From Enterobacter mori LMG 25706 (GTDB lineage: Bacteria; Pseudomonadota; Gammaproteobacteria; Enterobacterales; Enterobacteriaceae): a stretch of DNA of 64,000 nucleotides. Below, in pieces: positions 24,854-52,140 of this stretch; positions within the stretch are counted from its first letter, which is position 1; each line of letters opens with the position of its first letter. Where the stretch lies: assembly GCF_000211415.1 (NCBI RefSeq), contig NZ_GL890777.1:261330-325329 (forward strand). The letters run 5' to 3'. The notes under the pieces are model-generated. The model was not told where the DNA came from and ran no database searches. It was given only the letters and a program-made list of their open reading frames with translations. The position numbers and the translations under genes are program-made.

Positions 24854-24881
24854 AAAAACGGGCCTTTTGGCCCGTTTTTTT
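24854..24881 (+). terminator. eda terminator, overlapping the purT end
   Basis: AAACGGGCC-TTTT-GGCCCGTTT hairpin with a T tract running into the purT stop codon at 24880-24882 on the other strand. An A tract on the left side allows bidirectional function between the convergent genes. Confidence 0.85.
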
Positions 24882-26059
24882 ATCCCTCTACCTTGACGTT
24901 CGCAGCGGCCGCTTTCGCTCTCGCCACGGCGTCGTCCACGTTATCCCCGGTGGCTAACGCTACGCCCAAACGACGGGTTCCATCGATTTCCGGCTTACCG
25001 AACAAACGGATCTGCAATCCTGCACCTACCGCTCCGTCAACGTTATCAAACGTCACGTTCCGGCTGGTCAACTCGGGCAGGATTACGGCCGATGCCGCAG
25101 GACCGTACTGGCGAATGCCGCCAACAGGCAGGCCGAGGAAAGCGCGCACGTGCAGGGCGAACTCGGAGAGATCCTGCGAAATAAGCGTCACCATGCCGGT
25201 ATCATGCGGACGAGGGGAGACTTCGCTGAAAATCACCTCGTCGCCGCAAACAAACAGCTCTACGCCGAAGAGACCATAGCCGCCGAGCGCCAGGACGGCC
25301 CTGCGGGCGATATCCTGCGCGCGCTCCAGCGCCAGAGCGCTCATCTGCTGCGGCTGCCAGGATTCACGGTAATCGCCGTCTTCCTGACGGTGGCCAATCG
25401 GGTCGCAGAAATGGACGCCATCCACGGCGCTAACGGTGAGCAGAGTGATTTCGAAATCAAACTTCACGACGCCCTCAACGATCACGCGACCGGCTCCGGC
25501 ACGACCGCCCTGCTGGGCATAATCCCACGCGTTATCCAGCGCGCTGCTGTCACGAATAAAGCTCTGTCCTTTACCGGAGGAGCTCATCACGGGCTTAATG
25601 ATGCACGGGTAGCCAATCTCCTCTACGGCCTGCAGGAATGCGGCTTTATCACCAGCAAAACGGTAGCTCGACGTGGGCAACTCCAGCTCTTCTGCGGCCA
25701 GGCGGCGAATGCCCTCGCGGTTCATGGTGAGCTTCGCGGCGTTGGCGCAGGGCACCACGCGCTGGCCTTCCTGCTCAAGAGTAATGAGCGTGGTCGGTGG
25801 CAATGGCTTCGATTTCCGGCCCGACAAAATCGGGTTTCTCGCGCGTAATCAGCTCGCGAAGGGCATCGCCATCCAGCATGTTAATGACATAAGAACGATG
25901 GGCAACATGCATCGCGGGGGCGTCGGCATAACGGTCTACGGCAATGACTTCAATGCCCAAACGCTGGCATTCAATAGCGACCTCTTTACCCAGTTCACCC
26001 GAGCCTAAAAGCATCACACGTGTCGCCGCAGGTCGCAGCGCGGTTCCTAAACGAGTCAT
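24880..26059 (-). pseudogene. purT: Formate-dependent GAR transformylase, frameshifted
   Basis: PurT makes formylglycinamide ribonucleotide from GAR, formate and ATP in purine synthesis (ATP-grasp family). Here it is split into two frames. The first, from [15 protein letters not shown] at 26059, is faithful to PEIEAIATD (residue 89) and then runs to a stop (HAHYS). The second continues the protein at [15 protein letters not shown] to the normal end. One extra base at 25792-25793 (plus-strand GG in CGTGGTC) explains it. Without that base the gene has exactly 392 codons, the E. coli length. Residue 80 is Gly where I expect Val, so a substitution sits beside the insertion. It may be a real null allele or a sequence error; purN would still supply the step. 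Confidence 0.9.
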
Positions 26060-26093
26060 AAAAATCCCCCTGAAAAAGTTGCGGGCAGTATAA

Positions 26094-26109
26094 ACGAAAA
26101 CGTTTGCGT
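26094..26109. promoter_or_regulatory. PurR operator of purT
   Basis: ACGAAAACGTTTGCGT matches the PurR box (ACGCAAACGTTTTCGT type, central AACGTT) and lies 35 bp upstream of the purT start. It places purT in the purine regulon and shows that the regulatory region of the broken gene is intact. Confidence 0.82.
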
Positions 26110-26230
26110 CTGTCTTGCGCGCGGGGTCTTTCATCGCACAACAATTTGCGCTTCTTTAGAGCAGGCAGACATTTCCTGACACCCACTCGCTTAGGCTGTG
26201 AGCAATATGCACGGTTAAGTGAGGGGAATC

Positions 26231-47630: not shown

Positions 47631-47722
47631 CATTGCCTCTTTATCGTTGTTGTCATGCATTTAGCCTAACCTGTTTACTCAGTGAAACAAGTGCACGATT
47701 CCGAAAAGAGTTTGATGAGGTA

Positions 47723-47739
47723 CAGTTAGACGCTGTTTA
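47723..47739 (+). promoter_or_regulatory. PhoP box of mgrB
   Basis: CAGTTA-GACGC-TGTTTA fits the PhoP direct repeat (TGTTTA-N5-TGTTTA), the second half being exact. A -10-like GATAAC/ATAACC lies 10-11 bp downstream, the class I spacing of PhoP promoters. It is 50 bp before the mgrB start. mgrB is PhoP-activated in E. coli and Klebsiella, forming the negative feedback loop. Confidence 0.68.
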
Positions 47740-47788: not shown

Positions 47789-47933
47789 GTGAAAAAAATA
47801 CGCTGGGTAATTCTGGTTATCGTGTTGGTGGCATGTGTGGTGCTGTGGACACAGACTATCAACGTGAATGTGCGATCAGGATGTACAGTTTTTTAGCGGC
47901 GTTTGCGCAATCAACAAGTTTATTCCGTGGTAA
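47789..47933 (+). pseudogene. mgrB: PhoQ inhibitor MgrB, frameshifted
   Basis: MgrB is a 47-residue inner-membrane peptide that binds PhoQ and damps PhoPQ signalling. From the GTG start the frame reads MKKIRWVILVIVLVACVVLW through TINV (residue 26), then one extra A at 47867-47868 (GTGAATG where GTGATG is expected) shifts it to NVRSGCTVF and a stop at 47894-47896, giving 35 residues. The other frame continues exactly with MCDQDVQFFSGVC and AINKFIPW and a TAA at 47931. Joined, they make 47 residues. The lost part holds both periplasmic Cys and the segment needed for PhoQ inhibition. Such a lesion should de-repress PhoPQ. A sequence error is the alternative. Confidence 0.92.
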
Positions 47934-49981: not shown

Positions 49982-49993
49982 GGAATTTTGCAA

Positions 49994-50203
49994 ATGGCAA
50001 AGATTAAAGGTCAAGTTAAGTGGTTCAACGAGTCTAAAGGTTTTGGTTTCATTACTCCTGCTGACGGCAGCAAAGATGTGTTCGTACACTTCTCTGCAAT
50101 CCAGGGTAATGGCTTCAAAACTCTGGCTGAAGGCCAGAACGTTGAGTTCGAAATTCAGGATGGCCAGAAAGGCCCAGCTGCAGTTAACGTAACTGCTATC
50201 TGA
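49994..50203 (+). CDS. cspC: Cold-shock-family RNA chaperone CspC
   Basis: 69-residue single cold-shock domain protein that binds single-stranded RNA and acts as a transcription antiterminator; it stabilises rpoS mRNA in E. coli. The RNP motifs KGFGFITP and DVFVHFSAI are present. Start [11 protein letters not shown] after AAGGAATTTTGCAA. Constitutive rather than cold-induced in E. coli. Confidence 0.97.
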
Positions 50204-50279: not shown

Positions 50280-50439
50280 TCTGTTATCTTTCAAAATATT
50301 ACCATTCCTCTTCTTGTTAGTAACTTGTTGCAAAGCTACGAGGTTATTAGCATTGTTTCCTCTCCTTCAGATCGGTTTTTCCCGTTAAATCAGGGCGTTG
50401 ATCAACAGCCCTGAGGCTCAGGCGAAAAAGAAAACCATA

Positions 50440-52140
50440 ATGACCACCGGAAACTTTACGCCGGCGCGTTTTGCTCTGCTTTGTTTTGCTATTTTTTGCA
50501 GTCTGGCTTTTTTGCTGGGGCGGGTGGCCTGGCTGCAAATCGTTAAACCTGACAATCTGGTTAAGCAGGAGGACATGCGCTCGCTGCGTGAGGTCGCCAT
50601 TGATGCTCCGCGCGGAATGATCGTGGATCGCGAGGGAAGGCCGTTGGCGGTGAGTGTGCCTGTCCGGGCGGTATGGGCCGATCCTAAAACGGTACTGGCA
50701 AAAGGTGGCGTAGGGTTTGACAACCGCTGGCAGGCGCTGGCCAATGCGCTGCATCTCTCTCTGAGCACGCTGTCGTCGCGAATAAACAGCAATCCGCAGG
50801 GACGGTTTATTTACCTGGCCCGTCAGGTCGATCCTTCACAGGCGCAGTGGATAGACAAACTCAACCTGCCGGGCATTAATTTACGCGATGAATCCCGCCG
50901 CTTTTACCCTGCGGGACATGTGGCGGCCAATCTTATTGGCTTTACCAATATCGATGGACAAGGAATTGAAGGTGTTGAGAAGAGTTTCAATACTCAGTTG
51001 ATGGGCAAGCCTGGCGTCCGACAGGTGAGGGAAGACCGCTATGGGCACGTGGTTGAAAATCTGACGGAAGTGGCACCCGTGCCTGCCCATAACATTCAGC
51101 TGAGTATTGATGAGCGTCTGCAAACTATCACCGAAGATGCGCTCGATAATGCGGTGGCGTGGAATAAAGCCGAGTCGGGGGCGTCGGTATTAATCAATAT
51201 CCAGACGGGCGAAATTCTTGCGATGGCAAGCTATCCGGATTTTAACCCTAATAATCGCGAAGGGGCGACGTTAAACGATTTCCGTAATCGTGCAATAAGC
51301 GATACCTTCGAACCGGGTTCGACCGTCAAACCGCTGGTGCTGATGACGGCGCTGCAGCAGGGGCTGGTGCAGCCGGACAGCGTGATTGACACCCACCCGT
51401 ACATGCTTGACGGGCACCGTATCCGCGATGTGGGTTACTACCCGGAACTGACGATGACCGGCATTCTGCAAAAATCGAGCGATACGGGCGTGTCACGCCT
51501 CTCTCTTGCGATGCCGGTCCAGCATCTTATTGATACCTACAGAAACTTTGGTTTCGGCACAAACACTGGCCTTGGCTTAACGGGGGAAAGTGCGGGGCTA
51601 TTACCACAGCGTAAATTCTGGAGCCAGCTCGACAGGGCGACGTTTGCATTCGGCTATGGCCTGATGGTGACGCCGCTTCAACTGGCGCATGTTTACGCCA
51701 CTATCGGTAGCTTTGGTCTTGAGCGTCCACTCTCTATTACCCGCATTGACCCTCCCGTTATGGGCCACCGGGTGATGTCAGAGGCGATTGCGCATGAAGC
51801 CGCACATATGATGGAAAGCGTTGCGCTGCCGGGTGGCGGCGGTGTTAAGGCCGCAGTACGTGATTATCGCGTGGCGGTGAAAACCGGGACGGCGAAGAAG
51901 ATTGATGACAGCGGGAAATATGTCGATAAATATGTCGCCTATACCGCTGGCGTTGCGCCTGCCAGCGATCCGCGCTTTGCGCTGGTGGTGGTCATCAACG
52001 ATCCTCAAAACGGCGCCTACTACGGCGGTGCCGTCTCCGCGCCGGTGTTCAGCGAAATTATGGGCAACGTGCTGCGTCTGGAGAATGTGAGACCGGATGG
52101 TCTACCGGCGGATTCTGACCACCTTATCGTCATGCGTTAA
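50440..52140 (+). CDS. Second FtsI-like transpeptidase (PBP3SAL type)
   Basis: 567-residue class B penicillin-binding protein, a paralogue of division transpeptidase FtsI. One N-terminal transmembrane helix (residues 10-30), a dimerisation domain, then the transpeptidase with STVK at 294-297, SSD at 346-348 (SSN in FtsI) and KTGTAKK from 481. Position beside cspC and rlmA is that of Salmonella PBP3SAL, which works at acidic pH and inside host cells. The ORF can be extended to a TTG at 50398, but [11 protein letters not shown] at 50440 is the first ATG. The canonical ftsI is in the dcw cluster, outside this window. Confidence 0.9.

What the first reader, a model, noticed from the sequence alone, without database searches (positions are those of the whole stretch)
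47789..47933. Single-base frameshift inactivates mgrB
The sequence shows two frames that join perfectly if one A at 47867-47868 is removed: 26 residues upstream plus 21 downstream make the 47-residue MgrB. As written the product ends at 35 residues with an unrelated tail and lacks the conserved periplasmic MCDQDVQFFSGVCAINKFIPW-type end. Known: MgrB represses PhoQ, and its loss in Klebsiella raises PhoPQ and lipid A modification, giving polymyxin resistance; the effect in Enterobacter is less uniform. The PhoP box upstream is still present, so the feedback wiring is intact but the repressor is broken.
Basis: partly seen in the sequence, partly recalled or inferred. Interest (0 to 1): 0.85.

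Follow-up and report, generated by a model that had tools for sequence, protein, structure and literature searches.

The report
Split mgrB gene, probably assembly error
The gene for a small brake on a bacterial stress sensor is cut in two by one extra base in this Enterobacter-like draft genome; the lesion is of a well-known kind linked to polymyxin resistance, but the same draft shows extra bases in several other core genes, so it is more likely a sequencing or assembly error than a real loss.

Summary
mgrB lies at 47789-47933 in two frames: a GTG-started 35-residue product whose first 26 residues are MgrB, and a 21-residue stretch (47868-47930) that is the MgrB C-terminus. It is the only MgrB match in the genome. 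All 59 other genus genomes with a match cover the 29-position model in one frame; the 60th ends its contig before the gene. The two halves differ from the nearest relative by 0 of 78 and 1 of 66 bases. If real, the lesion is of a known kind: E. coli MgrB cut to 29 or 34 residues does not repress PhoQ (PMC8404706), and mgrB loss raises colistin resistance in Enterobacter (PMC7699182). Against it being real: over 1.18 Mb compared with that relative, 11 of 882 ORFs are in two pieces with an indel in this draft, all 11 by extra bases, including purT in this window; the reverse test gives 2 of 871. TolQ is whole in 60 of 60 other genomes, broken only here. Cruder counts were balanced. I put over-call at 0.64 and real loss at 0.32. 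Reads would decide. Low interest either way.

The parts
47789..47896 (+). mgrB, first reading frame: GTG start, 35 aa; residues 1-26 are MgrB (cytoplasmic end and membrane helix), the last 9 are out of frame
   Evidence: NF007635 positions 1-26, 34.4 bits, below cut-off
47868..47933 (+). mgrB, second reading frame: the 21 C-terminal residues with both conserved periplasmic cysteines, and the stop codon
   Evidence: NF007635 27-47, 49.1 bits; PF13998 9-29, 50.7 bits
47866..47868 (+). place of the frame break, between codons 26 and 27; this draft is one base longer here than the nearest relative, in a run of two
47723..47739 (+). PhoP-box-like direct repeat CAGTTA-N5-TGTTTA, ending 49 bases before the start codon
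47391..47660 (-). yobH, upstream neighbour (open frame as listed)
   Evidence: PF13996
48008..48298 (+). yebO, downstream neighbour
   Evidence: PF13974
24880..26134 (-). purT, also in two frames in this draft, one extra base near 25793; comparison case for the artefact reading

Best explanation
The gene is an otherwise normal mgrB, with a PhoP-box-like element, of an Enterobacter-like genome, and the frame break is most likely an extra base put in by the sequencing or assembly of this draft. In that case the organism makes an ordinary 47-residue MgrB and its PhoPQ feedback is intact. Shown: the two frames, the absence of other decay, and a one-sided set of extra-base frame breaks in other genes of this draft. 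Inferred: that the mgrB break belongs to that set.
For: Three stretches (1.18 Mb of this genome) were compared with the nearest relative G034, 96% identical at this locus. Of 882 comparable ORFs open in G034, 19 are in two pieces here; 11 of these carry a frame-changing indel, and all 11 are extra bases in this draft. In the reverse test 7 of 871 are in two pieces, 2 with indels. 11 of 11 at even odds has p = 0.001; even odds is the background, since one-base differences over the first stretch are 192 extra and 199 missing. Nine of the 11 match a protein family. In six (purT, yccS, pqiA, RNase T2, DUF520, Usp) the break lies inside the family match; for a TolQ/ExbB-family gene the genus comparison places it inside the gene. 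TolQ is whole in 60 of 60 other genomes and broken only here. YccS and PurT are in two frames here. This draft has 96.8% completeness where 56 of 60 others have 99-100%, and it has N-filled gaps. The two halves of mgrB differ from the relative by 0 of 78 and 1 of 66 bases, so the break is very recent or not there.
Against: Cruder counts do not show the one-sidedness: ORFs with any out-of-frame columns were 26 of 307 here and 26 of 300 in G034, two-piece or truncated ORFs 10 of 309 and 8 of 307, though 19 of 325 and 9 of 324 in the second stretch. Isolated one-base differences within ORFs of 60 aa or more are 39 extra and 28 missing, p = 0.22, noncoding 12 and 13. PurT and YccS are not perfect everywhere else: G011 and G045 (PurT) and G037 and G043 (YccS) have one in-frame stop in the match, G001 is shortened in both, and G006 has a gapped PurT match in one frame. 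Three of the 11 broken ORFs are doubtful as genes or as breaks, and the break in the PutA-like ORF lies past its matched domains. The mgrB site is a run of 2, not a long homopolymer, with no N gap within 27 kb. mgrB is a gene in which real loss is often selected. No reads could be seen.
Confidence: 0.64

Rival explanations
1. A real, recent one-base frameshift inactivates mgrB. The cell makes a 35-residue membrane stub without the periplasmic end; PhoQ loses its feedback inhibitor, PhoP output rises, and PhoP-driven lipid A modification (arn operon) makes the cell more polymyxin resistant.
For: Single MgrB match in the genome. PhoQ (487 aa) and PhoP (224 aa) are full length and 99.4% and 99.6% identical to the nearest relative. 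One PMT-family match; that ArnT belongs to this family is recalled, and the match was not typed further. In E. coli, MgrB cut to 29 or 34 residues shows no detectable repression, and C28, D31, F34, G37, C39 and W47 matter individually (PMC8404706, passages). Lack of mgrB gives colistin resistance in an E. cloacae isolate (PMC7699182) and raises L-Ara4N and survival in E. xiangfangensis (PMC9832134, passages). One strain with an mgrB frameshift and unchanged phoP and phoQ had an MIC above 128 mg/L after polymyxin exposure (PMC11955652, passages).
Against: The break fits the set of extra-base breaks in this draft, including genes whose joint recent loss would be strange (tolQ, purT). None of 59 other genus genomes with a match is broken over the model.
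Confidence: 0.32
2. The frameshift is real but leaky: the out-of-frame stop at 47894-47896 begins with the last of six T (47889-47894), and slippage there would bring the ribosome or polymerase back into MgrB's own frame, giving a little hybrid protein with altered residues 27-35.
For: Read directly from the sequence: the end of frame A, GTT TTT TAG, overlaps TTT TTT AGC of frame B.
Against: The T run encodes the conserved Phe-Phe in relatives, so it is there for another reason. The hybrid would still lack C28, D31 and F34, individually important in E. coli MgrB (PMC8404706). No stimulating element was looked for.
Confidence: 0.02
3. A functional shorter MgrB: the 35-residue or the 21-residue product works in this species.
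For: Both frames are open.
Against: All 59 matching genus genomes cover the model in one frame and 79 of 80 named loci have a continuous frame of at least 47 residues. In E. coli neither MgrB cut to 24, 29 or 34 residues nor the periplasmic peptide alone inhibits PhoQ (PMC8404706).
Confidence: 0.02

Closest known systems
MgrB (NF007635 / PF13998), PhoQ-inhibiting small membrane protein
   Same: The two pieces match complementary parts of the family; GTG start as in the 59 relatives' loci; neighbours yobH and yebO; PhoP-box-like element
   Different: Two frames instead of one; the frame that starts at the GTG lacks the periplasmic end
Acquired mgrB frameshifts, deletions and insertions in polymyxin-resistant Klebsiella and Enterobacter
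   Same: Same gene, same class of lesion, same expected consequence if real
   Different: No phenotype and no reads are available here, and the draft shows other extra-base breaks
Extra-base (over-call) errors in draft assemblies (class recalled, not from a call)
   Same: One-sided extra bases in conserved genes, no other decay in mgrB, lowered completeness
   Different: The mgrB site and most of the 11 broken ORFs have runs of 2-3; only two have a long run (seven)

Membership tests
MgrB | Sequence match to the family over its cut-off | tested here: met
   C-terminal piece over cut-off in PF13998 (50.7 vs 27) and NF007635 (49.1 vs 40); N-terminal piece below the NF007635 cut-off (34.4 vs 40) and without a Pfam match
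MgrB | One continuous frame of about 47 residues | tested here: not met
   Two frames as written; one frame over the model in all 59 other matching genus genomes
MgrB | Two conserved periplasmic cysteines in the frame that starts at the GTG | tested here: not met
   They lie only in the second frame; their importance is from PMC8404706
MgrB | Place next to yobH and yebO with a PhoP-box-like element | tested here: met
MgrB | Represses PhoQ | not testable with these tools
   Needs a reporter assay
Real acquired mgrB inactivation | Lesion present in the reads of the isolate | not testable with these tools
   No reads. An exact search for the junction in genome contigs gave 0 matches, but own or very near records may be left out there
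Real acquired mgrB inactivation | Polymyxin resistance of the isolate | not testable with these tools
   No phenotype data
Assembly over-call | Same class of lesion recurs, one-sidedly, in unrelated core genes of the draft | tested here: met
   11 of 882 ORFs in two pieces with an indel, all extra bases, against 2 of 871 in the reverse test; TolQ, PurT and YccS genus-wide; cruder counts were balanced
Assembly over-call | General excess of extra one-base differences over missing ones | tested here: inconclusive
   39 extra vs 28 missing in ORFs, p = 0.22; 12 vs 13 noncoding; 192 vs 199 over the first stretch
Assembly over-call | Long homopolymer or gap edge at the site | tested here: not met
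   Run of 2; nearest N gap about 27 kb away

The most novel reading that the evidence does not exclude
The frameshift is real and the allele is not fully null: slippage on the six-T run at the premature stop yields a trace of a 47-residue hybrid MgrB, so that the strain is a weakly braked PhoPQ variant rather than a clean knock-out.
Probability: 0.02. Interest if true: 0.45.

Novelty: already known. Interest (0 to 1): 0.14.

Why it matters
If real, it would be one more case of mgrB loss, a documented chromosomal route to polymyxin resistance in Enterobacter. If an artefact, it is a caution: resistance predictions made from mgrB in draft genomes need read support, and a look for one-sided frame breaks elsewhere in the same draft can tell when to distrust them.

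Tried and rejected
Other copies of mgrB: the whole genome has a single match. The genus genome without a match (G040): its homology to this locus stops at the end of its contig, so it says nothing about loss. Old pseudogene: rejected, because the two halves differ from the nearest relative by 0 of 78 and 1 of 66 bases. Loss shared with the nearest relative: rejected, G034 is intact (L033). A broken sensor system that would make mgrB irrelevant: PhoP and PhoQ are full length. The family model PF18583 for ArnT rang in none of the 14 control genomes and was not used; PF02366 was used instead. A one-base difference upstream near 47721 was considered as a second local error, but frame-changing indels in noncoding DNA run at 3.37 per kb between these two genomes, so it is ordinary.

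The first frame comparisons mixed in N gaps, start-site drift, compensating indels and ORFs without family support; their counts are given under evidence against. One search drops ORFs with N. Of its 19 breaks here, 8 have no indel and are not counted as frameshifts. Of the 11 with indels, three are doubtful: a 132-aa and a 363-aa ORF without a family (the first overlaps a longer frame that is open in this draft), and a UPF0149 ORF whose family match starts after the break. A fourth, the PutA-like ORF, is broken past its matched domains; only its residues from about 300 on were scanned. One of 80 named loci (L116, Yokenella) gave no frame with my search pattern and was not followed up. The organism could not be named: the six best named loci are 82-83% identical over 3.7 kb, five of them labelled Enterobacter and one Lelliottia. 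Literature searches found the lesion class well described; PMC10350281 was seen in passages only, and the listed papers not named in this report in the listing only.

Full report
What is there. The window holds mgrB between yobH and yebO. The GTG-started frame (47789-47896) gives 35 residues; its first 26 match the MgrB family model at positions 1-26 (34.4 bits, below the cut-off of 40), and its last nine are unrelated. The next frame (47868-47930) holds the remaining 21 residues, positions 27-47 of the model (49.1 bits). The genome has no second MgrB match.

Is it unusual? In a genus-wide search of 61 genomes, this one included, 60 match. The 59 matching relatives all cover the whole 29-position model in one frame, and only this genome covers positions 9-29. 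The one genome without a match, G040, ends its contig before the gene. In 59 relatives' loci read directly (some genomes twice) the frame is continuous and has a GTG at the expected start. Of 80 named loci, 79 have a frame of at least 47 residues; one gave no frame with my pattern and was not followed up. The nearest relative, G034 (96% over the locus), is intact and differs by no base in the first half and one base in the second. The break is therefore very recent, or not real.

Regulatory context. A PhoP-box-like element, CAGTTA-N5-TGTTTA, lies at 47723-47739; 13 of 14 relatives printed have its equivalent at about the same place. PhoP (224 aa) and PhoQ (487 aa) are full length and 99.6% and 99.4% identical to those of G034. 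One PMT-family match and two EptA/EptB-type N-terminal domains are present; these were not typed further. So the sensor that MgrB would restrain is there.

If real, what it would do. In E. coli, MgrB cut after residue 24, 29 or 34 shows no repression, the periplasmic peptide alone shows none, and C28, D31, F34, G37, C39 and W47 are individually important (PMC8404706, passages). Deletion of mgrB in E. xiangfangensis raises L-Ara4N on lipid A (PMC9832134, passages). A clinical E. cloacae lacking mgrB is highly colistin resistant and becomes susceptible when it carries mgrB; deletion in ATCC 13047 expanded the resistant cells by Etest, while broth microdilution saw no difference (PMC7699182, first of three parts). 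An mgrB frameshift was among the changes after polymyxin exposure in carbapenem-resistant E. cloacae complex strains (PMC11955652, passages). The 35-residue product would thus be a null or nearly null allele. This is a known kind of lesion.

Is it real? I could not see reads, so I asked whether this draft breaks other genes in the same way. Three stretches of the genome (384 kb including the window, 400 kb and 400 kb) were compared with the matching stretches of G034. Of 882 comparable ORFs of at least 100 aa that are open in G034, 19 are in two pieces in this draft. Eleven of these carry a frame-changing indel, and in all 11 it is an extra base or two in this draft. In the reverse test, 7 of 871 are in two pieces and 2 carry indels. 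Eleven of eleven at even odds has p = 0.001, and even odds is the background: 192 extra and 199 missing one-base differences over the first stretch. Nine of the 11 have a family assignment: purT, yccS, pqiA, a PutA-like ORF, a UPF0149 ORF, and RNase T2, TolQ/ExbB, DUF520 and Usp family ORFs. In six the break is inside the family match, and the TolQ break is inside the gene by comparison with the genus. The UPF0149 break may lie upstream of the true start, and the PutA-like break is past the matched domains.

Genus-wide checks. TolQ is full length in 60 of 60 other genomes and broken only here. YccS is in two frames only here; of 59 others with a match, G001 (78% completeness) is shortened and G037 and G043 have one in-frame stop; G054 has no match. 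PurT is in two frames here; G001 is shortened, G006 has a gapped match within one frame, and G011 and G045 have one in-frame stop. A wild strain with fresh insertions in tolQ, purT, pqiA, yccS and more, with no deletion-type breaks found, is hard to believe; a draft with occasional over-calls is easier to believe. The lower completeness (96.8%; 56 of 60 others have 99-100%) fits.

Results against the artefact reading. Cruder counts are balanced: ORFs with any out-of-frame columns 26 of 307 here and 26 of 300 in G034; split or truncated ORFs 10 of 309 and 8 of 307 in the first stretch, though 19 of 325 and 9 of 324 in the second. These counts include N gaps, start-site drift and compensating indels. 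Isolated one-base differences in ORFs of 60 aa or more are not significantly one-sided (39 extra, 28 missing, p = 0.22), although that mask includes many ORFs that are not genes. The mgrB site is a run of two, and no N gap is within 27 kb. mgrB is also a gene that is often lost under selection. I therefore leave real loss at about one in three.

Verdict. Most likely an over-call in a draft assembly (0.64); otherwise an ordinary, already known kind of mgrB inactivation (0.32). The rating 'already known' holds for the kind of lesion; if the over-call reading is right, the break is not a real feature at all.

Noticed in passing
24880-26134 (-): purT is split into 119- and 315-residue frames by one extra base near 25793; likely the same kind of draft error.
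   Followed up: yes
G000:C4:498286-498831 (tolQ), G000:C4:769786-771946 (yccS): tolQ and yccS of the same genome are also broken by an extra base; pqiA by two.
   Followed up: yes
L182:6249-7538 (-): A phage-type integrase gene (PF00589 and an Arm DNA-binding domain) ends 70 bases before the phoP start codon; the sequence just upstream of phoP is alike in G034 and G021 and different in G017 and G024.
   Followed up: partly
47889-47896: A run of six T overlaps the premature TAG; slippage there would return to the MgrB frame (read).
   Followed up: no
50398-52140 (+): An FtsI-subfamily penicillin-binding protein (NF011685) of 580 aa as listed from a TTG start, downstream of a cold-shock domain gene at 49988-50203 (PF00313); not compared with any other ftsI of the genome.
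   Followed up: no
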